Shown here: piece after piece, positions 767 through 9,527 of the stretch
How the letters are laid out: the number at the start of each line of letters is the position of its first letter
How positions within the stretch are numbered: position 1 is the first letter of the stretch
From: Robiginitomaculum sp.
GTDB lineage: Bacteria; Pseudomonadota; Alphaproteobacteria; Caulobacterales; Maricaulaceae
Direction of reading: 5' to 3'
Length of the DNA stretch: 35,552 nt
NCBI GenBank assembly: GCA_002733905.1
Contig: NVXK01000028.1
Location: 5,571 to 41,122, forward strand
Notes under the pieces: generated by a model
Told to the model about the DNA's origin: nothing
Database searches by the model: none
The model's input: the letters and a program-made list of their open reading frames with translations, nothing else
Translations under genes and position numbers: made by a program

Positions 767-1222
767 ATGTTTGGAGCAATGATTTTTGCCAAAGCGGCAG
801 GAAGTAAATTAAAGGGATTATTCAAAGGCAAGAAGGGCAAAGAAATTCTTGAAAAAGAAGTCAGCGACCTTGGCCTAAATTCACAAGGCGTAGATATTCA
901 TGTGGACGATGACGGCAAAGTGACCATTTCAGGCAAAGCTGTCTCCCAAGAAATGAAAGAGAAAATCATTCTGGCCGTCGGCAATGTCTCTGGCGTTGGC
1001 GAAGTCAATGACGAAGCCGAAACCGAAGACGGCGGCGTAGCCTCAAAATTTCACGAAGTTGTCAGTGGTGATACGCTCTGGGGTGTTTCGAAAACTTACT
1101 ACGGTAAAGGCAACCGCTATATGGAAATTTTCCACGCCAACGAACCTATGCTCTCCCACCCCGACAAAATCTACGTCGGCCAAATGCTCCGCATCCCTGC
1201 AGACGCAAAAGCCAGCGTTTAA
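767..1222 (+). CDS. kbp: Kbp-like BON + LysM domain protein
   Basis: The 151-residue protein has the architecture and length of E. coli Kbp (YgaU): a short amphipathic N-terminus, a BON domain at about residues 25-85 (VTISGKAVSQEMKEKIILAV), then a LysM domain at about 95-148 (VVSGDTLWGVSKTYYG to KIYVGQMLRIP). Kbp in E. coli is a cytoplasmic K+-binding protein linked to growth under osmotic stress. No signal peptide is evident here, which fits a cytoplasmic location. AAAAGGAG precedes the ATG. The stop codon falls inside the first unit of a 15-bp tandem repeat, so the last residues could drift. Family assignment is firm; the potassium role is transferred from the E. coli protein. Confidence 0.88.
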   Translation: MFGAMIFAKAAGSKLKGLFKGKKGKEILEKEVSDLGLNSQGVDIHVDDDGKVTISGKAVSQEMKEKIILAVGNVSGVGEVNDEAETEDGGVASKFHEVVSGDTLWGVSKTYYGKGNRYMEIFHANEPMLSHPDKIYVGQMLRIPADAKASV

Positions 1223-1290
1223 GAAACAAGTGTTTAAGAATCAAGTGTTTAAGAAACAAGCGTTTAAGACGCAAATATTTAACACAGCAA
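1215..1290 (+). repeat. 15-bp tandem repeat overlapping the kbp stop codon
   Basis: Four near-identical 15-bp units (consensus GTGTTTAAGAAACAA) run 1215-1229, 1230-1244, 1245-1259 and 1260-1274. A degraded fifth unit follows to about 1290. The TAA of kbp is in unit one. Each unit carries the same TTTAA, so frame-keeping copy changes still leave a stop. The shifted frame spells repeated K-Q-x-F-K but has no support as a gene. Confidence 0.85.
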
Positions 1291-1319: not shown

Positions 1320-1357
1320 ATTTAGGGCCGCGCAGTGCAAACTGCGCGGCCCTAAAT
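1320..1357. other. Perfect 17-bp inverted repeat with GCAA tetraloop
   Basis: The arms 1320-1336 and 1341-1357 are perfectly complementary (ATTTAGGGCCGCGCAGT and its reverse complement), with a GCAA loop, a GNRA tetraloop in RNA. No U-run follows on either strand, so it is not a textbook Rho-independent terminator. It could still end kbp transcription or be an insertion-related palindrome. It directly abuts the truncated lipoprotein module starting at about 1362. The rest of the stretch 1223-1428 holds only the tandem repeat and that module. Confidence 0.8.
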
Positions 1358-1361
1358 GTTT

Positions 1362-1418
1362 CATCTCAAGCGTGGTGGAGTGGGACGAGTGATTTTGGTG
1401 CCGAGTGGAAAGAAATGC
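1362..1418 (+). repeat. Truncated GRVILVP module, copy A
   Basis: This 57-bp piece matches the 3' end of the long module at 3370-3622. It encodes KRGGVGRVILVPSGKKC. The frame is open from an ATG at 1356 inside the hairpin and continues as ESGDE to a TAA at 1434-1436, overlapping the ATG (1429) of the next gene. It is a remnant of a lipoprotein gene whose 5' part is missing, cut at the inverted repeat. It may now serve only as a leader that supplies GAGTGGAG as ribosome binding site for the next ORF. Confidence 0.8.
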
Positions 1419-1428
1419 GAGAGTGGAG

Positions 1429-2097
1429 ATGAATAAAGTTATGATGACAAATGTAAGAATGAAGAAAGCTTTGAGTTTTTTGTTGCCTATCCTTGTATGT
1501 GTTGGGTGTAATGCGCCGTCATCTGCGGCGCAAGATAAGGCGTAAAAAAATGATGAAAAACCTGCACAAATAATCACGCAAAAGCAACAGCCAAAACAAG
1601 ATGAACTTGACCCAATGAAGAATCCCAAAAACTTCTTTCCGTCACTCGCATCAATAGCTTACAAGAAAAACCATACTTTATCCTGCGGTAATTCTAAAAT
1701 TATTGATGAACAGCGCCTCTATGATAAATTGAAATACGTTACCGACGAACATGTAAAACAGGCAAGGTTTTTACTGCATGTAGCCGTTTGTAATGACTTG
1801 GCTTATAATTTCTCAAAGGCAATTCGTGATGCACAAAGTGTTGTTTTTATAGAGGATATAAGAGGGCAAAAATCTGAGGAACTTGAAATAGCTCTTTCCC
1901 TTTTAGCTACGCACGTTTTTGGAGGTTATGATATTCAGGCTTGGGCGCATTACCGTTTAAAGAGTGGTGGACTTGTATTGAGAGACGGCTTTAAACGCTC
2001 CGATGAACGAAATGGTAGAGCCATTAAGTCTAGAGTGAGGAGTAATTTAGTGATATTTTTCAACTTCCGATTGGAAAATATTGGGTGGAGAAGGTAG
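1429..2097 (+). pseudogene. Predicted lipoprotein gene split by an in-frame TAA
   Basis: From the ATG at 1429 the frame encodes a lipoprotein-type signal (KKALSFLLPILVCVGC) and then AAQDKA before a TAA at 1543-1545. The same frame then stays open as KNDEKPAQ and onward to 2097, so one base change separates the signal from about 183 further residues. An internal ATG at 1615 could give a 160-residue cytoplasmic product. The lipobox has Cys at -3 (VCVGC), so lipidation is likely but not certain. The body contains LYDKLKYVTDEHVKQARFLL and is not recognised. The start overlaps the stop of module copy A, suggesting translational coupling. It could be a true pseudogene, a read-through gene or a sequencing error. 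Confidence 0.7.
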
Positions 2098-2118
2098 ATG
2101 TCACATCGAATAGTTAGG

Positions 2119-2264
2119 CCGCATCATCTAGCGCGTAAACCTCTACATCTAAAACAACCCCCAACAACAAAACCTGCAAACCCAACTTCAACCAAATCTA
2201 TCAACCGCCACTCAAGCTTGACGGAGTGGGGCGAGTGATTTTGGTGCCGAGTGGAAGAAAATGT
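2119..2264 (+). repeat. Truncated GRVILVP module, copy B
   Basis: This region aligns with the middle and 3' end of the long module (3370-3622), but is more diverged and lacks the signal peptide part. In the shared frame it reads ASSSA, a TAA at 2136-2138, then TSTSKTTPNNKTCKPNFNQ, IYQPPLKLDGVGRVILVP and SGRKCEVVG. It ends at a TGA that overlaps the ATG of the following gene as ATGA. It is a decayed paralogue of the 5' half of the genes at 3350 and 6912. Confidence 0.85.
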
Positions 2265-2275
2265 GAGGTGGTCGG

Positions 2276-3198
2276 ATGAAACTACGTGTCCTATTGTTTT
2301 GCACTGTTGTGTGCACAGCATGCCAAAATGATGTGCAGCCTGTTTATGAAGATGAAGTGAATATATCTCCTCTAAGTGATAAACAAGAAAAAAATTCAAC
2401 AATATAGTGGAAAGATTACATTGCAAAGATGCTATGTCGCCTTTGGGGGTGTACAGAGGCAGTAACGTGGAAATCATTTCTTATAATGAGTATAACAAGG
2501 CCATTGATCCGATAGATTTTAAGTGGGTGATTGAAAGCCCTTTTTTTGAGAGAGCAAAAGAACAATTTGATATAAAGTTTTTAAAAGTAGATAATGGAGG
2601 TTTTACGTCGGGGGAGAGGCTTCGGGTAAATATTATTCACTATGCTCTAAGGCAAGGTGGGTCAAAACATGAAGGCCCAAGACACCCTCTCGAAGAAAAC
2701 TATGAAAATTCTTATCTTGCTGACGCGATAAATTTTTCTCCTAGGCGACTTATGAGTCAGTATAAACATTTTCACTGTAGAGGAGACTATACCTGTTCCG
2801 CGCTGTCCCCCAATGACGGGATCCATGAAAACTTGCCCGCAATGCGAAGTATTTCAGGTTTTATCAAATATAAAGATGGCGCTCCAGCGGAAACCTATTG
2901 CTTTAACCTCGGCTCTCCTCCTCAGGTTAAATCTAAAGTGGTTATTGTAGACGGAAAGCGTGTAAATATGAATATACCCAGCCAAGAATATTATCTTCGT
3001 AGGTATACGGAATGTTTTGCCCGATCTTTTGGGTATTCCAAATATGCCTTTGGCCCTGCAAAGTTTGAGGGCATTGAGGGATTGTCCAGCCTGTTTGCGG
3101 TTAAAAGAAGGGCGCCTTGGGGGGCTGTAGAGTTATCTGAGGAAGAGATCGTGAACACCATAAATTGTTTAAGTGAAAATAGAGGCTTCAATGAGTGA
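2276..3198 (+). pseudogene. Predicted lipoprotein, frameshifted at an A7 run; DUF2927-like C-terminus
   Basis: The ATG at 2276 opens a lipoprotein signal (MKLRVLLFCTVVCTAC, candidate lipid Cys16) and runs to a TAG at 2405-2407. The body continues in another frame, open from 2383 and callable from a GTG at 2407 as a 263-residue ORF. Slipping back one base in the A7 run at 2388-2394 joins both into one protein of about 307 residues. The C-terminal part has C-x(n)-ECFARSFG and a later NTINC, a pattern shared with the genes at 6912 and 8649 and loosely like DUF2927 proteins of Alphaproteobacteria. The start overlaps the stop of module B (ATGA). Whether this is a mutation, phase variation or programmed slippage cannot be told. 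Confidence 0.7.
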
Positions 3199-3322
3199 AT
3201 TAGGTTCAAATTATAGAACTATAGATTTAATAGGGCATTATGGCAGAATTCCAAGAAATGTACATATCTCCTCTGGATTTACGGGGTGGCGAGTGGGTGA
3301 CTCTGTTACGTCTTATGGTTAA
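3191..3322 (+). CDS. Small ORF, possibly a truncated gene
   Basis: This 43-residue ORF (MSELGSNYRT to GDSVTSYG) starts inside the last codons of the preceding gene, with GAGGC just upstream. Its TAA (3320-3322) lies at the first bases of the 51-bp repeat at 3319. That suggests a longer gene was cut when the repeat was inserted or recombined. No signal peptide or known domain is seen. It may not be expressed as a functional protein. Confidence 0.35.
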   Translation: MSELGSNYRTIDLIGHYGRIPRNVHISSGFTGWRVGDSVTSYG

Positions 3323-3369
3323 GGGGCGAAGGTTGTATTGGGTATGTGAATGCGTCACGGAAATAGCAT
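3319..3369 (+). repeat. 51-bp direct repeat, copy R1
   Basis: The sequence from TTAAGGGGCGAAGG to GGAAATAGCAT is repeated with one mismatch at 4911-4961. In both places it immediately precedes a lipoprotein gene and supplies the start codon and leader residues MRHGNSI. It probably carries the translation start, and perhaps a promoter, for the downstream gene. Confidence 0.9.
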
Positions 3370-4879
3370 TGTGAGAAGGCTTATTATGGGATTGCGTTTA
3401 CCTGTGTGTGGATTGGTTTTATTTGCGCTTATGGGGTGCCAAAGTGTACCTAAATCGAGTGACGCGGATATTGCAGAGGCTTCATCTAGCTCACAAACCT
3501 CTACATTAAACACACCTTCCAATAATAAAACCTGTAAACCCAGCTTCAAGCAAATCTATCAACCACCACTCAAGCTCGGTGGCACGGGGCGGGTGATTTT
3601 GGTGCCGAGTGGGGAGAGGTGTAGAGGAAGTATCGCCAAGAAGTTAATTCAAAAAAATGAAGTCCCTGTGACGGCGGCTTCTTATCAGGATTATAGTGAT
3701 GAAAATTTTGACTTCCATGATACTATTGAGGATTTCCAATCAATACTAGAAGATGAACCATTTTTGGATATTGTTGATTTTTACGTGAAAGTAAATACAG
3801 ATTATAATTTATTATTAAAAGGAATTGACGGACGGTTAGAAGTTCTTTTGCATGAGGGGGAAGCCGTAAATTGGTGTGAAGAGGAAAATTTTTTCGCAAA
3901 ATATGACTTTAATTGTTCGAACTCTTTAGGTGACATGAGTGCCGCTTTCTTTAAATATTTTTCTCTCGCTGAAAACTATATGTTTCATGCACCATGTAAT
4001 AAAGTTGGCCGATGTTTAGGTGATAAACATTATAAGAAAAGTTTAGAAGTGCTAAAATCAATTGCAGGGTATTCAACGGCAGAGTGGATTAATCCTGATA
4101 TTCTTGAGGACCCTCACCGTCCCAATATGAGTGATTCAACAGAAATAATAAATTCTAAATCTTGTAAAACTGCTTTGTATTCAAATCTCATTTATCAACG
4201 ATTATATAGATATGCAAAAACAAGCGTTAATAAAAAAGAAAAAACAAAAGCGCTTAACAAGGTTACCGCAAACTTTAAGTACTTTTCAAATGGGGTTTTG
4301 TCTGAAGATAGTGACTTTCAAGAACAATATAAAAAATGTGCTGAATGGGAAAGGGCCCCGTACACAGGGTTTTCGATATTAGAAATTTCAAATATTTATA
4401 ATTCACTGCTATCAAAAGCAATAACTGCAGATGTCGCATTAGATCAGTTGAAGGAATTCGAGGTGAAATTACTAAAAAAAAGAAGAACTGAATTATCTAT
4501 TCCTAGTGGTCGGGAAAGGCTCTTGCTTGACGATGGTTTCACCAAACAGGCCACGATTGTTTTATACTTGAGCACATATGTGTTTATTTATGAAAATTAT
4601 AATGAATCATGGAGTAGGTGGCATAAAGATGAACGCTCTCCATTCTGGTATACAGGGATAAATGATTTTATAGATAAATTAGAAATGCATATATTGACAT
4701 TTTCACCCAAAATGAACCGTACTGTTTGGCGTCAAAGCGCAAGAACATTGGTCGTTTTTTATGATAATGCCGCAGAAAAATTGATGTCTGATGGGGATGT
4801 TTTCGAGAGTTTAATCATGAAAAAACAAAGTGTTTGTACGCTAGCCGCAATACACAAGATTGGTGGTGTTTGTGAATAA
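3350..4879 (+). CDS. Mosaic lipoprotein with constant N-terminal module and unique C-terminal region
   Basis: This 509-residue protein has a lipoprotein signal (LRLPVCGLVLFALMGC, lipobox LMGC, lipid Cys30), a Ser/Thr/Asn-rich linker, and then the constant segment KTCKPSFKQIYQPPLKLGG followed by GRVILVPSGERC (to about residue 91). That first 91-residue part is almost identical at the DNA level to the start of the gene at 6912. The remaining 420 residues are not recognised. They are rich in Lys, Tyr and Asn, with several Cys (CNKVGRC, VCTLAAIHKIGGVC) that suggest a disulfide-bonded exported domain. The ATG at 3350 comes from repeat R1; a GTG at 3371 is an alternative start kept in both module copies. 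No function is assigned. Confidence 0.75.
   Translation: MRHGNSIVRRLIMGLRLPVCGLVLFALMGCQSVPKSSDADIAEASSSSQTSTLNTPSNNKTCKPSFKQIYQPPLKLGGTGRVILVPSGERCRGSIAKKLIQKNEVPVTAASYQDYSDENFDFHDTIEDFQSILEDEPFLDIVDFYVKVNTDYNLLLKGIDGRLEVLLHEGEAVNWCEEENFFAKYDFNCSNSLGDMSAAFFKYFSLAENYMFHAPCNKVGRCLGDKHYKKSLEVLKSIAGYSTAEWINPDILEDPHRPNMSDSTEIINSKSCKTALYSNLIYQRLYRYAKTSVNKKEKTKALNKVTANFKYFSNGVLSEDSDFQEQYKKCAEWERAPYTGFSILEISNIYNSLLSKAITADVALDQLKEFEVKLLKKRRTELSIPSGRERLLLDDGFTKQATIVLYLSTYVFIYENYNESWSRWHKDERSPFWYTGINDFIDKLEMHILTFSPKMNRTVWRQSARTLVVFYDNAAEKLMSDGDVFESLIMKKQSVCTLAAIHKIGGVCE
3370..3622 (+). repeat. Long GRVILVP module, copy C
   Basis: This 253-bp segment is matched by 6956-7208 with only about nine mismatches that I could count over most of its length. 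It encodes the signal peptide, linker and the two-Cys segment ending GRVILVPSGERC. Homology stops sharply on both sides: upstream is repeat R1, downstream the unique part of the 3350 gene. Partial copies are at 1362, 2119 and 8596. Confidence 0.9.
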
Positions 4880-4910
4880 AAATAATCTGAGTATTAGAAA
4901 GCAGGATGCC

Positions 4911-4961
4911 TTAAGGGGCGAAGGTTGTATTGGGTATGTGGATGCGTCACGGAAATAGCAT
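4911..4961 (+). repeat. 51-bp direct repeat, copy R2
   Basis: This is the second copy of the 3319-3369 repeat, differing at one position (GTGGATG instead of GTGAATG). It provides the ATG at 4942 and the leader MRHGNSI of the next lipoprotein. Beyond it only weak similarity to the long module persists (KLIRMGL against RLIMGL). Confidence 0.9.
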
Positions 4962-5904
4962 AAAGCTTATCCGTATGGGGCTGATGTTTTCGTTGATGTT
5001 ACCTTTGTCGTCTTGTGACGCTATGAATGTAAATTCAGAGAAAAACACAGAAAAAAGAGAAGAACGAAGACAAGCGACAAAAAAAAATGTCCTTAAGAAA
5101 TATGTAGCAAAGCTTGAAAAGAAAGCAGCGCAAAGCGAGCGCTTCAAGAAACAACAAGAGGTTTATGGCATAAAAAAATGGGGGGAACCCATGCATGCTA
5201 AACTTGATAACCCTATTTATAAAATGCCGCTTGGAGCTTGTTTTGATTTAAGTAAGGTTGAATATCCATGGTATGTGATGAGTGAAGATAAATTGGCTTC
5301 AACGAGATGGAGCCCTCCAACAGGTTTCAGGCTCGGCGCTGAAATGGATTATTTCGGTTTTCCGCATGTGACTGTGGAGAGTGACAGTGTGATTTTGAAT
5401 GACCAATATTATTTTACTGTATTGGTGTGGGGCGGGACGCGAGAGAAAAAAAGAAAAAAAGAGTTGTGGGGGCCAGGAATGTGGGAAGTTTCCGAGGAGT
5501 GGGTACGAAGCGCTCTTGACGAAAGCAAAATATTAGTGTCCTCAAAGAAACCTCTTTTAACATCTGGAAAGTGGTCGTTTACCCAGTACGGCATGCGCGT
5601 ATATTCTCCTAGGGCGCCATATGCGCAAACAGGTAGTTCCTTTGTTGGTGTAGATATTGTGAATGGGGCTTATTATAATGACGACAAATGGATTAACGAA
5701 AACAATGGGCCACATGGTTTTATTGGTAACTACCCGATAGATGAAGATAAGATGAGTTATCTATATGGTGAGGGTAGTTATACTAGTTCAGATGGTAAGT
5801 ATTATGTTGTTTTTAACCTTCCGACATTTGCCACGCCTCATATCGCCGAAGTGTTTGACCTTATTGAGAACAAATTGAAATCCATACGCGTACCGTGTGA
5901 ATAG
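4942..5904 (+). CDS. Predicted lipoprotein of unknown function
   Basis: The 320-residue product has a signal ending in LPLSSC (lipid Cys25). A strongly basic, probably helical stretch follows at about residues 30-75 (repeated K, R, E and Q), then a C-terminal domain of mixed strands rich in Trp, Tyr and Gly. It ends VPCE. TTG and ATG starts at 4930 and 4936 are possible. The ATG at 4942 is preferred because it matches the start used at 3350 within the shared repeat. The GRVILVP segment is absent. No family is recognised. It sits between two other lipoprotein genes of the mosaic locus and is transcribed in the same direction. Confidence 0.7.
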   Translation: MRHGNSIKLIRMGLMFSLMLPLSSCDAMNVNSEKNTEKREERRQATKKNVLKKYVAKLEKKAAQSERFKKQQEVYGIKKWGEPMHAKLDNPIYKMPLGACFDLSKVEYPWYVMSEDKLASTRWSPPTGFRLGAEMDYFGFPHVTVESDSVILNDQYYFTVLVWGGTREKKRKKELWGPGMWEVSEEWVRSALDESKILVSSKKPLLTSGKWSFTQYGMRVYSPRAPYAQTGSSFVGVDIVNGAYYNDDKWINENNGPHGFIGNYPIDEDKMSYLYGEGSYTSSDGKYYVVFNLPTFATPHIAEVFDLIENKLKSIRVPCE

Positions 5905-5912
5905 GAGGCTTT

Positions 5913-5996
5913 ATGCCAGATACAGTATCTGATTTTACACCGTCTGAACTTGCAAAAATTAAGAATTTACAGGGTAGGAAATGGGATGAAAATTAA
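5913..5996 (+). CDS. Very small ORF with strong ribosome binding site
   Basis: This 27-residue ORF (MPDTVSDFTPSELAKIK then NLQGRKWDEN) begins six bases after an AGGAGG overlapping the end of the preceding gene. It ends in TAA inside the start of a frameshifted membrane ORF at 5986. The good Shine-Dalgarno and close spacing suggest translation, perhaps to couple the next ORF. It could also be a truncated gene start. No homology is recognised. Confidence 0.4.
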   Translation: MPDTVSDFTPSELAKIKNLQGRKWDEN

Positions 5997-6200
5997 GAAA
6001 TTTAATAAAAGACCCCGTTATTTTATAAGAATTTTATTATAGTTGTGCTTGTAATAATCCCAATATCAGTGACCGCTATTTTAGGTTTGTATTCCAGAAT
6101 TCATATAAAAGATGGTTTGTGGTTTACTTTGCGTAAAGCAGAAAACCTAAAAAATGAAAAACGTAAGCGTTTGGTGAACCCCGCCTTGTGTAGATATTAA
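5986..6200 (+). pseudogene. Frameshifted small membrane protein
   Basis: An ATG at 5986 begins MKIKKFNKRP, and this frame soon reaches TAG. A second frame, entered by a shift around the CCCC run at 6013-6016, continues FIIVVLVIIPISVTAILGLY, a clear membrane segment, then a basic tail ending NPALCRY at a TAA (6198). Joined, they would make a single-pass protein of about 70 residues. It is broken, or an indel lies in the C-run. From 6201 to 6331 I see nothing beyond a G-rich possible ribosome binding site (6289-6294) before the next gene. Confidence 0.45.
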
Positions 6201-6331
6201 CTGCCCAGCGCGTATTTTTGCCTTGTGATTTTTTCTTTATTCTGGCAACGTCCGAGTAACTAGAACGCAAGAATTGTTGGACAAAAAAGGGGGGTGTCAT
6301 AGTAAAAAATATTGCATATTACGTTCTATGC

Positions 6332-6721
6332 ATGCCGTTCCTTGTTTATGCGTTGATACGGCTATTTGGTAATTTTGCACTCTTTGGACAAATTACTGGT
6401 TGGTTTAAAAGTGAAGTTGGCGCTTTGATAATCAAAAAAATCACCGAAGGCATGGATAAGCTCAACCCGCAAGCATTTATTAAAGTCTCCCCCGGTATTT
6501 ATTTAGCCTATGTTGCAGTTGTTGGGATAACTATGGCAGTCGGGACGATAGGCATACTTCTCAAGCAAAATTGGGGGTTTTATTTTATGACTGCATATTG
6601 CCTTTTATTCATAGTTGGGATCGTGAATTTTAAGGCTTTCAATATTAAAGTAGTGATTTTCGCATTTTATGTTGTTGCACTTATTATCTTATATTTCCTA
6701 CGCAGCAAGACAAGAGCATAG
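6332..6721 (+). CDS. Small multi-pass membrane protein
   Basis: This 129-residue protein has about three hydrophobic segments: around residues 50-75 (YLAYVAVVGITMAVGTIGIL), 82-98 (GFYFMTAYCLLFIVGIV) and 105-123 (VVIFAFYVVALIILYFL). A further partly hydrophobic N-terminus (MPFLVYALIRLFGNFALFG) precedes them. The frame is open upstream through VKNIAYYVLC, and GGGGGG lies at 6289-6294, so the true start may be upstream at a codon that is now ATA or GTA. No family is recognised. It belongs to the accessory block but carries none of its repeated modules. Confidence 0.55.
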   Translation: MPFLVYALIRLFGNFALFGQITGWFKSEVGALIIKKITEGMDKLNPQAFIKVSPGIYLAYVAVVGITMAVGTIGILLKQNWGFYFMTAYCLLFIVGIVNFKAFNIKVVIFAFYVVALIILYFLRSKTRA

Positions 6722-6849
6722 GTCAGCCAACTCACTGTTAAGCTTACGTCTCAATCAAGCTGTAGGCAATAGCGGCAGAATGCAGCCAAGATAAATAATT
6801 CTTTCTGCCAATCGTGATGTTGGGGTCTGTTCAGGCTGAGGGCGATATG

Positions 6850-6955
6850 TGATGTGCCCCTAGCTTTGTAGACATTTTGTTTGGTGAAAGTGGAAGCAAG
6901 GAGATTTACAAATGGGAACAGGAATACGGTATACAGGCGAGTTCAAACGAGATGT
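6850..6955 (+). mobile_element. Probable IS3-family left-end remnant
   Basis: The segment opens with TGATGTGCCCC and TTGTAGACA, resembling terminal inverted repeats of IS3-family elements. A proper AGGAG site and an ATG at 6912 follow, encoding GIRYTGEFKRDVV, like the start of an OrfA transposase (family pattern R-x-x-F-K-x-x-x-V). The remnant ends exactly where the lipoprotein module begins (6956), so only the terminus and about 15 codons of orfA survive. No right end or OrfB was found in the window. Family assignment is from memory of consensus patterns. Confidence 0.45.
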
Positions 6956-7934
6956 TGTGAGAAGGCTGGTTATGGGATTGCGTTTACCTGTGTGTGGATT
7001 GGTTTTATTTGCGCTTATGGGGTGCCAAAGTGTACCTAAATCGAGTGACGGGGATATTGCTGAGGCTTCATCTAGCGCGCAACCCTCTACATTAAACACA
7101 CCTTCCAATAATAAAACCTGTAAACCCAGCTTCAAGCAAATCTATCAACCACCACTCAAGCTCGGTGGCGTGGGGCGGGTGATTTTGGTGCCTAAGGGAG
7201 AGAAGTGTACCCTCAAGAAAAATGTTTGTGATAGGCTCCGAGAATATAAGGGGGGCGTGACTAAAAGAAAAGCATTTAAGTCAAAATGGAATCGTCAGCG
7301 TTTAAGTGTGGCGACTTTCCTTTTCCCGGACAAAAGTTTTCATACTGTTGACCGTAAAGATTTGCTAAAAAGGGCTATTACGGAGCATTCTAAATATTCA
7401 AAGTATGACTTGAGCCTAATAACTGATGACCAAAATCTCTATGACAATCCAGTCTATGCCGATATAAACATCATCAATTATAATCGAGCCGGTTTGAAGA
7501 AAAATCAATTTATTAGTCACAGTGAAATTCGCCCACCTAGTATAAGTCATTTTGAGTCATTTGCAAATTTTGGTATATATAACACGATACCCTATAGAAG
7601 CACTAAACTTGGTTACTTGAATCATACTAGTTCTTATGGAATTCGAACAACGGCTTCTTCACCAGAAGTTCTTACAGGACGGATAGTTCATTCACGAAGT
7701 CTTGGGAAAATACATCATGTCTTTTGTAATATATCTACTGATGTCAATGAACAACTTTATGAGACGTTATTGCAAGAGTGTTTTCTTCGTGCGGAAGGGT
7801 TTCCTGGAGTTATTGAATTTGATCCTGATGGTGGGGGCGAAGCCTCACATTTTCACGTTCAAAACTACACCCCAGTTGATAAACCAAATTACTTGCGTGG
7901 ATTTGAATTAATAGAAAAGTGCCAGGAGGAATAG
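6912..7934 (+). CDS. Mosaic lipoprotein: IS-derived start, constant module, DUF2927-like C-terminus
   Basis: The 340-residue ORF begins with about 15 residues of apparent IS3 OrfA origin (MGTGIRYTGEFKRDV) in frame with the constant lipoprotein module (lipobox LMGC, Cys38 of this ORF; GRVILVPKGEKC at about 88-99). The GTG at 6957, equivalent to 3371 in the sister gene, may be the original start, but the AGGAG at 6900-6904 favours the ATG at 6912. The unique part includes VFCNIS, then QECFLRAEGF and a final EKCQEE. This Cys and Gly spacing is shared with the genes at 2276 and 8649 and loosely recalls DUF2927. Its function is unknown. Confidence 0.72.
   Translation: MGTGIRYTGEFKRDVVRRLVMGLRLPVCGLVLFALMGCQSVPKSSDGDIAEASSSAQPSTLNTPSNNKTCKPSFKQIYQPPLKLGGVGRVILVPKGEKCTLKKNVCDRLREYKGGVTKRKAFKSKWNRQRLSVATFLFPDKSFHTVDRKDLLKRAITEHSKYSKYDLSLITDDQNLYDNPVYADINIINYNRAGLKKNQFISHSEIRPPSISHFESFANFGIYNTIPYRSTKLGYLNHTSSYGIRTTASSPEVLTGRIVHSRSLGKIHHVFCNISTDVNEQLYETLLQECFLRAEGFPGVIEFDPDGGGEASHFHVQNYTPVDKPNYLRGFELIEKCQEE
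6956..7208 (+). repeat. Long GRVILVP module, copy D
   Basis: This is the second long copy, nearly identical to 3370-3622. It starts at TGTGAGAAGGCT immediately after the IS-like remnant and ends at the codon for the second conserved Cys. The near identity next to diverged copies A, B and E points to recent duplication or gene conversion between C and D. Confidence 0.9.
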
Positions 7935-7998
7935 ATCGTTACGAGCCATAAAAATTTCTGGCCTGAAAACCCGTCAAGAAAATTTGAAATTTGCTCCG

Positions 7999-8079
7999 AT
8001 GGCTGAAAAACCTAGCACTTCCTTATTACAGAGAATGACAATATTAGAGAAGACGTTAAGATGCCACAATCAACAGTAG
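7999..8079 (+). CDS. Very small ORF, doubtful
   Basis: A 26-residue ORF (MAEKPSTSLLQRMTILEKTL then RCHNQQ) overlaps the start of the 8061 gene in another frame. Upstream, a start-less open stretch (FWPENPSRKFEICSDG) ends in a TGA overlapping this ATG. It has no clear Shine-Dalgarno. It may be a decayed gene fragment rather than a real product. Confidence 0.2.
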   Translation: MAEKPSTSLLQRMTILEKTLRCHNQQ

Positions 8080-8570
8080 ATGAAGAGTATATTCAAAATG
8101 CCCTTAAATATTACCCAATGGAAGCTGCGACTTTTCTTCCTGACAGGTATGACTGGCTTGATGAAATGACGACTAGGGCATTTTTTGAAAAGTCAAAGTA
8201 TTATGGCGCTAATTTTAAGGGGGTGGATATTCCCAAGCGGCCCGTAAGTGAAGTGTTGATGATGTTGAATGAGTATATGTCACGCCCTTACCTTCTAGAT
8301 GCTAAACGTAAAATTGTTCAAAACTATGAAGAGTTTGGGTGGTCTGATCCTGGAGGAGCGACTTTGGTGGATCGGGAGGTAGCTTTGCTTCTGTTGTGTA
8401 ATGATTATTTGCAACACAAATATGGCAATAAATATTCTGGGCGTATGACAGTTTTAGAAAAATATTTCACAGGGCTTGCTTTGGGTGATTACGTTGGGTT
8501 GGATGACCCGCTGCTCCTAAGTGATTTAAGGGCTGCAAAAGATTTTACGTATGATTTAGGAGAGCATTAA
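8061..8570 (+). CDS. Hypothetical cytoplasmic protein
   Basis: This 169-residue, mostly helical and acidic protein (MPQSTVDEEYIQNALKYYP start) has no signal peptide or membrane segment, unlike its lipoprotein neighbours. An in-frame TAG at 8013 and no better start codon fix the ATG at 8061; its ribosome binding site is weak (ACGTTAAG). The middle contains LLLLCNDYLQHKYGNKYSG. No family is recognised. A cytoplasmic gene between two secreted-protein genes could be an accessory partner, but nothing in the sequence shows this. Confidence 0.6.
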   Translation: MPQSTVDEEYIQNALKYYPMEAATFLPDRYDWLDEMTTRAFFEKSKYYGANFKGVDIPKRPVSEVLMMLNEYMSRPYLLDAKRKIVQNYEEFGWSDPGGATLVDREVALLLLCNDYLQHKYGNKYSGRMTVLEKYFTGLALGDYVGLDDPLLLSDLRAAKDFTYDLGEH

Positions 8571-8595
8571 TGTCATTTCGAAACAGAGATCCTGT

Positions 8596-8637
8596 GACGT
8601 AGGGCGAGTAATTTTGGTGCCGGGTGGGAAGAAATGT
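8596..8637 (+). repeat. Truncated GRVILVP module, copy E
   Basis: This 42-bp piece encodes DVGRVILVPGGKKC and continues ESGK to a TGA at 8650 that overlaps the ATG of the next lipoprotein gene (ATGA). It starts 26 bases after the stop of the 8061 gene. It is the shortest of the five copies, and its GAGAGTGGAA is the likely ribosome binding site for 8649. Confidence 0.82.
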
Positions 8638-8648
8638 GAGAGTGGAAA

Positions 8649-9527
8649 ATGAAGGTTTTGAAAAAAATATCTTGGGCCGCGGTGTTGTGTTGCCCATTAT
8701 TGCTGGGATGTTCCGAACCTAGGTTGGTTTGCGATTTACCATTTAAAGAAGGCGTTATAAAGCGTCTGGTAGCACCTACTTTGTCATATTTTGATATGGC
8801 TGGTGAACCTGCACTCGATATACTCGGCGATGAGGATATTGAAAGTGTTAGGACGTTAATTGAAAAAACAACAGGCTTACCCATTACATTAAGTGCGGAG
8901 TTGGCAATCAGAAACAGCATTGTTATTGTTGAAACTTGCCGCGTGAAGCGAGATGGATGTAGGAATTATTATGGGAATAATTTTTGTAAAAAAGGTGAGT
9001 ATAAGCTGTTTTATCCTGATATAGACGCTTATAGGAATCGAATAAAATGTAACCGTATTATACATGCGTTCCCCCATACGGATGGAATATATCATGTAGG
9101 AGAAAATATGGGCGCCTATATAAAGGGAGAGATGCGTGATTTTAATGGTTTTGAAAGGCTTTCAGTGGCCTTTGTTTTTCCTTCTATAGGGCGCAGGCTT
9201 GTGAGTGATAGAAAAATGTCAGAGCGCAATGTTGATGGACAAATGTTTCTAAAAAGTAAGTATAATGATCAAGGTAAAACACACACTTTTCCAGAAATTT
9301 CGACAACATTATGTTACGTCACTTTTGATTTAGAATTGGCGGAGAAGAAACGGTTGGTTTCAGAATGCTTAATCCGCTCTTTTGGTTTGTTTGAACATTC
9401 CCCGAACTCTACTGGCTATTTAAGCCCTAATATCAAGAAAACGCCTAAAAATAAATATTTCTTTACACCCGAGCCAATGGTGAAGGCTTGCTTGTCACAT
9501 CTCTACGAACAAAAAGAAGGTACGTAA
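8649..9527 (+). CDS. Predicted lipoprotein, DUF2927-like
   Basis: The 292-residue protein has a clear lipoprotein signal (WAAVLCCPLLLGC, lipobox LLGC, Cys21). An N-terminal stretch VRTLIEKTTGLPITL is followed by NSIVIVETC, and a C-terminal ECLIRSFGL is followed by a late KAC. This order (a helix ending in TGLPI, a strand, then C-L-x(4)-G-L) resembles DUF2927 proteins as I remember them; I cannot run a profile search. The gene starts within the stop codon of module E, so its translation is probably coupled to that remnant ORF. Its own signal and start are intact. Confidence 0.7.
   Translation: MKVLKKISWAAVLCCPLLLGCSEPRLVCDLPFKEGVIKRLVAPTLSYFDMAGEPALDILGDEDIESVRTLIEKTTGLPITLSAELAIRNSIVIVETCRVKRDGCRNYYGNNFCKKGEYKLFYPDIDAYRNRIKCNRIIHAFPHTDGIYHVGENMGAYIKGEMRDFNGFERLSVAFVFPSIGRRLVSDRKMSERNVDGQMFLKSKYNDQGKTHTFPEISTTLCYVTFDLELAEKKRLVSECLIRSFGLFEHSPNSTGYLSPNIKKTPKNKYFFTPEPMVKACLSHLYEQKEGT

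What the first reader, a model, noticed from the sequence alone, without database searches (positions are those of the whole stretch)
1320..9527. Mosaic lipoprotein locus built from one shared 5' module and unrelated 3' regions
A segment encoding a lipoprotein signal, linker and GRVILVP-x-G-x-x-C occurs as two near-identical long copies (3370, 6956) and three truncated copies (1362, 2119, 8596). Each copy is joined to a different downstream gene, with sharp homology edges. Constant 5' and variable 3' parts on surface-type lipoproteins, with several broken members, look like a recombination-driven diversification locus or a decaying one. I know no named system with this module.
Basis: partly seen in the sequence, partly recalled or inferred. 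Interest (0 to 1): 0.75.

Follow-up and report, generated by a model that had tools for sequence, protein, structure and literature searches.

The report
Leftover immunity genes from toxin arsenal
A marine bacterium carries a row of unrelated lipoprotein genes that share one short front piece; comparison with relatives suggests they are spare antidote genes left over from exchangeable toxin-and-antidote cassettes of a toxin-export operon, which would explain why the front stays constant while the rest changes.

Summary
Five module copies lie in the window: two of 255 nt at 95% identity, three cut at their 5' side; similarity stops at the module's last Cys codon. The genome belongs with Robiginitomaculum (named from same-genus relatives), and the module recurs in relatives. 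Across 13 module-fused lipoproteins the 30-residue module is similar in 78 of 78 pairs, the part after it in 4 of 78.

In L045 and L047 the module lipoprotein sits between HlyD of a type I secretion operon and a giant protein. Across 18 loci found by the giant's core, HlyD is constant (78/78 pairs), the slot gene (0/136) and the giant's N-terminus (2/153) are not. G161's slot gene is an Imm11 immunity protein beside an AHH nuclease N-terminus; G269's is also Imm11. So the slot looks like an immunity slot, and the window array, in a genome without a toxin-core match, is best read as an orphan poly-immunity array, partly decaying. Recombination, toxicity and protection are inferred. My searches found no description of this system; FrpC/FrpD as effector and immunity is hypothesised in print.

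The parts
1365..1436 (+). 5'-truncated module copy (GGVGRVILVPSGKKC-ESGDE-stop); stop overlaps the next gene's start
1429..2097 (+). lipoprotein gene with its own signal peptide and lipobox (LP1), broken by an in-frame stop at 1543-1545; candidate orphan immunity gene
   Evidence: sequence; ORF 1615-2097
2098..2120 (+). gene-start stub (ATG directly after the stop of LP1) cut at the joint with the next module copy; candidate toxin-gene remnant
   Evidence: identity inferred from position only, could be chance
2121..2279 (+). module copy without signal peptide (144 nt, 80-81% to the long copies); stop TGA overlaps ATG 2276
2276..3198 (+). lipoprotein gene LP2, frame broken before 2407; candidate orphan immunity gene
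3191..3322 (+). 43-codon gene-start stub overlapping the stop of LP2; candidate toxin-gene remnant
   Evidence: similarity to toxin starts not significant after 21 comparisons
3319..3369 (+). 51-nt leader and first codons, repeated at 4911-4961 (98%)
3350..4879 (+). LP3: full-length module lipoprotein (module = residues 62-91) fused to a 418-residue domain also found in G012a (29% identity over 420)
4911..4961 (+). second copy of the 51-nt leader
4930..5904 (+). LP4: lipoprotein with the same leader but no module
5913..5996 (+). 27-codon gene-start stub after LP4; candidate toxin-gene remnant
   Evidence: no significant similarity
6332..6721 (+). small membrane-protein-like ORF, 129 aa, no Pfam match
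   Evidence: membrane character by eye
6810..6849 (+). resembles a stretch beside a Tn3-like Tn5403-family transposase gene (87.5% over 40 nt)
6912..7934 (+). LP5: full-length module lipoprotein (module = residues 70-99) fused to a different 241-residue domain
8061..8570 (+). 169-aa protein without an evident signal peptide, no Pfam match; possible second immunity protein (inference)
8570..8602 (+). 10-codon gene-start stub overlapping the stop of the 169-aa gene
   Evidence: identity inferred from position only, could be chance
8584..8652 (+). 5'-truncated module copy (GRVILVPGGKKC-ESGK-stop)
8649..9527 (+). LP6: intact lipoprotein; no match at E<=0.001 in 136 other family genomes

Best explanation
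The locus is an orphan poly-immunity array derived from a type I secretion (T1SS) polymorphic toxin system. In intact relatives the operon runs HlyB-HlyD - immunity gene - giant RTX-type protein, with TolC or HlyC genes seen beside some. The giant has an exchangeable N-terminal domain, the presumed toxin, ahead of a constant glycine-zipper/RTX export core. The constant module upstream and the constant toxin core downstream would act as homology arms, so one recombination could exchange the immunity domain and the toxin domain together; displaced cassettes remain as immunity genes with cut-off toxin starts. Shown: constant/variable pattern, edges, operon contexts, one Imm11/AHH pair and a second Imm11 slot, remnants in relatives. 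Inferred: recombination as the process, that the lipoproteins neutralise toxins, that the window stubs are toxin starts, that the window genes still protect the cell.
For: Module 78/78 pairs similar against post-module 4/78 in 13 fused lipoproteins. L045 and L047: 80% identical DNA over 663 nt from HlyD into the module, no DNA match for 3.7 and 2.2 kb, then 73-95% in the giant's core. 18 loci: HlyD 78/78, giant's N-terminus 2/153, slot 0/136 similar pairs; core 153/153, but the loci were found by the core, so that figure is by construction. Slot gene = Imm11 next to an AHH nuclease N-terminus in G161, and slot = Imm11 in G269, all above Pfam cut-offs; Zhang 2012 lists Imm11 with Tox-AHH (passages). 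PT-HINT in the G350 giant. RTX repeats in the four giants scanned; HlyC beside G106 and G350. Remnants beside module genes: in G009 a stub homologous to the giants' N-termini of G376 (z 33.7) and G285 (z 9.7), with its lipoprotein similar to the slot lipoprotein of G285 (z 11.2); toxin core in G004 and HlyD in the window genome's second locus; two stubs outside the window (C30c, G012b start) resembling the L047 giant's start, 0 of 500 shuffles each, best of 21 comparisons each. Four window genes are followed within -8 to +8 nt by a gene-start stub.
Against: None of the eight array ORFs scanned has a Pfam match above cut-off, and PDB searches gave only chance-level hits (E 0.36 and 0.74). No window stub is significantly similar to a giant's start: w3191 best p 0.008 before correcting for 21 targets, w5913 best 0.044, the other two too short to test. 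G026 and G106 share a toxin N-terminus but their slot proteins are not similar (z -0.7). The G269 giant has no Pfam toxin match. G218 has no slot gene between HlyD and the giant; no HlyD was seen upstream in G285 and G422b, and none in reach in G161. Three module lipoproteins (G007, G003, G024) lie in 18-19 kb stretches with no T1SS match, so the module is not confined to toxin loci. w3350 and G012a share module and C-domain, so not every member is exchanged. No fold could be computed. L045/L047 end inside the core and come from one metagenome bin labelled Arenicella.
Confidence: 0.68

Rival explanations
1. FrpD-like tether: the slot lipoprotein binds the N-terminus of its T1SS partner to hold it on the cell surface, for adhesion or display, and protects against nothing. 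It would co-vary with its partner for binding reasons.
For: FrpD, an outer-membrane lipoprotein encoded upstream of frpC, binds the FrpC N-terminus at about 0.2 nM and was proposed as a tether (passages). Gene order here is the same.
Against: The same slot holds Imm11 proteins in G269 (no signal peptide evident) and G161 (its N-terminus is beyond the contig end), the latter next to an AHH nuclease. Bayer-Santos 2019 found an FrpD-fold protein acting as immunity and proposed FrpC/FrpD as effector and immunity (passages). A tether does not explain arrays of partnerless copies.
Confidence: 0.14
2. Antigenic or surface variation: the locus shuffles 3' regions behind a constant 5' expression site to vary surface lipoproteins.
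For: Sharp edges, several copies, two full-length copies.
Against: The genes behind the short copies carry their own signal peptides and overlapping starts; L045 and L047 place the gene between HlyD and a giant toxin-like protein. No switching data.
Confidence: 0.09
3. Neutral decay: duplicated and transposon-shuffled lipoprotein genes with no present role.
For: Two of six lipoproteins broken, three modules truncated, a Tn3-like stretch at 6810-6849.
Against: Four of six lipoproteins remain open at 292-509 codons; unrelated sequences joined right after the same Cys in several species are not expected from duplication alone.
Confidence: 0.09

Closest known systems
FrpD/FrpC of Neisseria meningitidis (and the FrpD-fold immunity protein Smlt3025 of Stenotrophomonas maltophilia)
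   Same: Lipoprotein gene upstream of a T1SS RTX protein and acting on its N-terminus; antibacterial effector/immunity role proposed in print (PMC5233953, PMC7078468, PMC6759196; passages only)
   Different: No meaningful sequence match to any PDB chain for the lipoproteins tested; fold not computable; a constant module and arrays of orphan lipoproteins do not appear in the passages seen
Polymorphic toxin systems with poly-immunity loci (Zhang et al. 2012)
   Same: Variable toxin domains on constant export chassis, AHH paired with Imm11, HINT domains, arrays of immunity genes (PMC3482391, passages only)
   Different: Toxin domain at the N-terminus, immunity gene upstream, T1SS/RTX chassis; the AHH entry seen lists T2SS, T5SS, T6SS, T7SS and TcdB/TcaC, and a background passage names the Type I system for large RTX toxins
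CDI systems with orphan cdiA-CT/cdiI modules (recalled)
   Same: Displaced cassettes keep a fragment of the constant region and an immunity gene
   Different: No two-partner secretion domain in the giants scanned; opposite polarity
Cdz of Caulobacter crescentus (PMC7690452, passages only)
   Same: T1SS-borne antibacterial system with immunity gene; Caulobacterales; glycine-zipper sequence
   Different: Cdz uses a two-peptide toxin and CdzI, not giant proteins with variable N-termini
SitA lipoprotein toxins of Myxococcus (recalled)
   Same: Lipoprotein N-terminus joined to variable C-terminal domains
   Different: Here the lipoprotein is the presumed immunity partner, not the toxin

Membership tests
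Polymorphic toxin system | Constant delivery region joined to highly variable toxin domains | tested here: met
   HlyD 78/78 against giant's N-terminus 2/153 similar pairs in 18 loci (core 153/153 is by construction); in relatives, not in the window genome
Polymorphic toxin system | Adjacent gene is a cognate immunity protein | tested here: inconclusive
   Imm11 beside AHH in G161 and Imm11 in G269; lipoprotein slots inferred by position and one co-conserved pair, with G026/G106 against; no assay
Polymorphic toxin system | Recognised toxin domain | tested here: inconclusive
   AHH in G161 and PT-HINT in G350; the other N-termini scanned have no toxin-domain match above cut-off
Heterogeneous poly-immunity locus | Array of unrelated immunity genes without full toxins | tested here: inconclusive
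   Six lipoproteins behind module copies or the shared leader, no toxin core in the genome; immunity role inferred
FrpD family | FrpD fold or sequence | tested here: inconclusive
   No FrpD hit in sequence searches of the PDB; the fold was not testable, structure prediction was interrupted and then switched off
FrpD/FrpC-like operon | Lipoprotein gene directly upstream of a T1SS RTX protein | tested here: met
   G106, G026, G075 with RTX repeats; L045, L047 carry the module but their giants are cut by the contig end before any RTX
CDI (CdiA/CdiB) | Two-partner secretion: TPS N-terminus and CdiB | tested here: not met
   Pfam scans of four giants show RTX repeats and no TPS domain (the G005 one lacks its N-terminus); G106 and G026 operons carry ABC exporter and HlyD or TolC
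Cdz | Two small exported peptides as toxin | tested here: not met
   Exported partners are giants: 2250 (G106) and 2756 (G026) residues, G075 open frame 2425

The most novel reading that the evidence does not exclude
A T1SS-borne polymorphic toxin class in Caulobacterales in which one recombination cassette carries the immunity domain's 3' part and the toxin's 5' part between two constant arms (a lipoprotein module and an RTX core). One exchange would swap weapon and antidote together and leave trails of orphan immunity genes. By analogy FrpD/FrpC and ApxIV-type RTX proteins would be members of an antibacterial class, not adhesins or host toxins.
Probability: 0.4. Interest if true: 0.78.

Novelty: new variant of a known kind. 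Interest (0 to 1): 0.62.

Why it matters
It gives a concrete role to a group of T1SS giant proteins of unknown purpose and to the lipoproteins encoded beside them, and it makes the open question of FrpC/FrpD function testable in harmless environmental relatives. It also suggests a neat arrangement: putting the variable parts of immunity and toxin genes next to each other, between two constant arms, would let one exchange replace both.

Tried and rejected
SitA-type lipoprotein toxins: my first idea, dropped when relatives showed the lipoprotein between HlyD and a giant protein. Assembly artefact: unlikely, the array is inside a 41-kb contig, copies differ, and tandem module genes also occur in G012 and G312. 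DUF2927-like fold for LP2, LP5, LP6 and C30a: suggested to me by a shared motif (recalled label), but Pfam gave no such match for the three window ORFs and the alignments are weak; not claimed. Relatives of the window lipoproteins at E<=1e-3: LP3 and C30a none in 72,556 plasmids; C30a and LP6 none in 136 other family genomes. PDB searches gave nothing or chance-level single hits (E 0.19-0.74). Literature searches with no description of this system, judged from titles and abstract starts: searches (7 papers; 1; 5; 15 of 24 shown; 15 of 34 shown; 11) found the FrpD/FrpC papers; (10 of 34 shown) gave nothing on it. Papers opened, passages only: PMC5233953, PMC6759196, PMC10352306, PMC3482391, PMC7690452, PMC7078468. 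Subscription papers are not held.

Rows dropped: the pattern missed one of 19 module proteins (L134a), leaving 13 fused and 5 others; statistics use the 13 fused. One search lists 24 rows in 22 places; three were already fetched, 16 of the other 19 were fetched (not G254:C19, G254:C6, G374). L105 and L111 (no upstream sequence) and L116 (a transposase-like gene upstream, no slot gene seen) were left out, so the 18 loci are 13 of those 16 plus G106, G026, G075, L045, L047. L076 (G005) was left out because its N-terminus is missing. For two-gene slots (L045, G376) the gene next to the giant was used, for G422a the longer. BLAST E-values are for these tiny sets and so lenient. Lipobox counts: 7 of 17 slot loci by pattern, 10 with eye (L047, G350, G285 added). 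The Tn3 label rests; an IS3-like start of LP5 is recalled only.
Full report
OBSERVATION. One search shows the edges: within the 57-nt module the five copies are 63-88% identical, in the next 57 nt 14-35%. The two long copies begin and stop abruptly. The three short copies lack the 5' part, but at their 3' side they end in frame 4-5 residues after the last Cys at a stop that overlaps the ATG of the next lipoprotein. Stand-alone module lipoproteins end the same way in G009 (187 aa), two of three in G312 (181 aa each) and G084 (182 aa), 0-9 residues after the Cys. So they are 5'-cut copies of a separate-gene form, beside two copies of a fused form.

DISTRIBUTION. The window lies in G000, contig C19, 3.48 Mb in 43 contigs, completeness 96.9%. 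Its genus is named from relatives: contigs of the same-genus genomes G004, G012, G009 and G007 have the lengths of records titled Robiginitomaculum. A sixth copy is on C30. The alignment-based search found the module in 10 of 137 family genomes, the window's own included, 7 of them at E below 1e-18. A scan of genome contigs gave seven loci, four titled Robiginitomaculum, one Hellea balneolensis, two from one bin titled Arenicella. An order-wide search (299 genomes) added G312 in another family. In 13 module-fused lipoproteins the module is 30 residues from Cys to Cys every time, and similar in 78 of 78 pairs; the following domains in 4 of 78 (three pairs among the TonB_C-type proteins, and w3350 with G012a). 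In G004, G012a and G009 the long N-terminal part is 53-67% identical up to the module's end and what follows is unrelated.

CONTEXT. In L045 and L047 the module lipoprotein follows the end of an HlyD gene and precedes a giant open frame; in L045 a second lipoprotein lies between. Their DNA is 80% identical over 663 nt from HlyD into the module, has no match for 3.7 and 2.2 kb, and matches again at 73-95% in the giant's core. The core query found G106, G026, G075 and G005 among 137 family genomes; G106 shows TolC, an ABC exporter, HlyD, a lipoprotein overlapping a 2250-residue protein, and HlyC. With a core profile 19 of 398 order genomes match at E<=1e-10; in the genus only G005 of 14, and not G000, at E<=0.01.

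CONSTANT AND VARIABLE PARTS. For 18 loci: HlyD, seen in 13, similar in 78 of 78 pairs; the first 250 residues of the giant in 2 of 153; the slot protein, in 17, in 0 of 136. The core is similar in 153 of 153, but the loci were found through it. 12 of the 13 loci with HlyD have a gene between HlyD and the giant; G218 has none. In the other five HlyD was not seen: G161 starts at a contig end, G075 has TolC upstream, G285 and G422b show none in the stretch fetched, and in G350 I listed only part of the upstream stretch. By pattern 7 and with eye 10 of 17 slot loci have a lipobox-like site; the G269 Imm11 protein has none, the G161 one lacks its N-terminus.

FUNCTIONAL ANCHOR. In G161 the slot protein matches Imm11 (2.2e-5) and the giant's N-terminus the AHH nuclease family (1.1e-6); in G269 the slot protein matches Imm11 (5.9e-5), while its giant has no Pfam toxin match; the three matches exceed Pfam's cut-offs. 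Zhang et al. 2012 list Imm11 with Tox-AHH (passages). The G350 giant has a PT-HINT domain (2.4e-13). G075 and L047 carry HExxH in the N-terminus, a motif only. A cytoplasmic-type immunity protein in one locus and lipoproteins in others would fit toxins acting in different compartments; this is inference.

REMNANTS. In G009 the module lipoprotein is followed by a beta-propeller-type lipoprotein (PD40) and a 146-residue stub. The stub is homologous to the N-termini of the giants of G376 (z 33.7; E 2.4e-19) and G285 (z 9.7), and the lipoprotein to the slot lipoprotein of G285 (z 11.2); the G376 slot lipoprotein only hints at the same fold (PD40 below cut-off; z 2.3). G004 has a piece of the core upstream of its module gene, and C30 of the window genome a damaged HlyD upstream; the only other HlyD match in that genome is 24% identical. 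C30c and the start of G012b resemble the start of the L047 giant (0 of 500 shuffles each, best of 21 comparisons each); w3191 and w5913 do not reach significance. In the window, gene-start stubs follow four genes at -8 to +8 nt (ATG 2098, 3191, 5913, 8570; three after lipoproteins, one after the 169-aa gene). In the intact loci the giant starts from 20 nt before to 26 nt after the slot stop, with G422b at 166 nt as an exception and G350 and G161 unclear. Two window stubs are under 11 codons and could be chance.

READING. The window array is most simply a set of displaced immunity genes, some decaying, from a T1SS polymorphic toxin system. The module is the end of a small constant lipoprotein at the upstream border of the exchanged segment. 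That the module is used as a recombination arm is inferred from the edges; no exchange was observed. The damaged genes and the lack of a toxin core suggest that this genome no longer makes such a toxin, unless it lies in an assembly gap.

RESULTS AGAINST. G026 and G106 share an N-terminal region (30.6% over 232 residues) but their slot proteins do not (z -0.7); that region may be a delivery part, or the pairing rule may fail. G350 and G422b share a weak N-terminal match and their slots score only z 2.7. The module lipoproteins of G007, G003 and G024 lie in 18-19 kb stretches without T1SS matches. The window ORFs scanned and most N-termini lack Pfam matches. No fold was computed.

KNOWN SYSTEMS. 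Bayer-Santos et al. 2019 (passages) found that an effector similar to the N-termini of RTX proteins has an immunity protein with the FrpD fold, and proposed FrpC/FrpD as antibacterial effector and immunity. Sviridova et al. 2017 and the 2020 mBio paper (passages) report the FrpD-FrpC interaction and gene order and call the function unknown or propose adhesion. My reading extends that proposal to a family of loci with a recognised Imm11/AHH pair. I found no paper describing the module, the cassette arrangement or the arrays (searches; listings partly capped).

Noticed in passing
window 6810-6849 and 6912-6961: A 40-nt stretch 87.5% identical to a sequence beside a Tn5403-family (Tn3-like) transposase gene lies just upstream of LP5, and the first residues of LP5 look like an IS3 OrfA start (recalled). 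Mobile elements may have moved the module copy.
   Followed up: partly
L039:7390-8247, L041:9400-10263, L045:562-1434: Related module lipoproteins (TonB_C by Pfam in L039 and L045; L041 by similarity); in G007 and G003 at sites with matching neighbours and no T1SS genes nearby, in L045 inside the T1SS operon followed by a second lipoprotein. Possibly the parent form of the module.
   Followed up: no
L134:1082-2641: Three module-type small lipoproteins in tandem in a genome of another family of the order (G312), beside transposase-like genes.
   Followed up: no
L035:5957-6985: HlyD remnant fused to an N-terminal part that looks like a tyrosine recombinase (recalled) in the window genome's second module locus.
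   Followed up: no
L036:9979-11334: G012b looks like a toxin-gene start fused in frame to a module lipoprotein.
   Followed up: partly
L104, L115, L038: Lipoproteins that look like TolB-type beta-propellers, next to related giant N-termini.
   Followed up: partly
L073:15630-16157, L114:4043-4591: HlyC-type acyltransferase genes next to these giants, recalling the build of adenylate cyclase toxin (recalled).
   Followed up: no
window 1209-1283: A 15-nt tandem repeat (AAACAAGTGTTTAAG-like, about five units) at the end of the LysM/BON gene.
   Followed up: no
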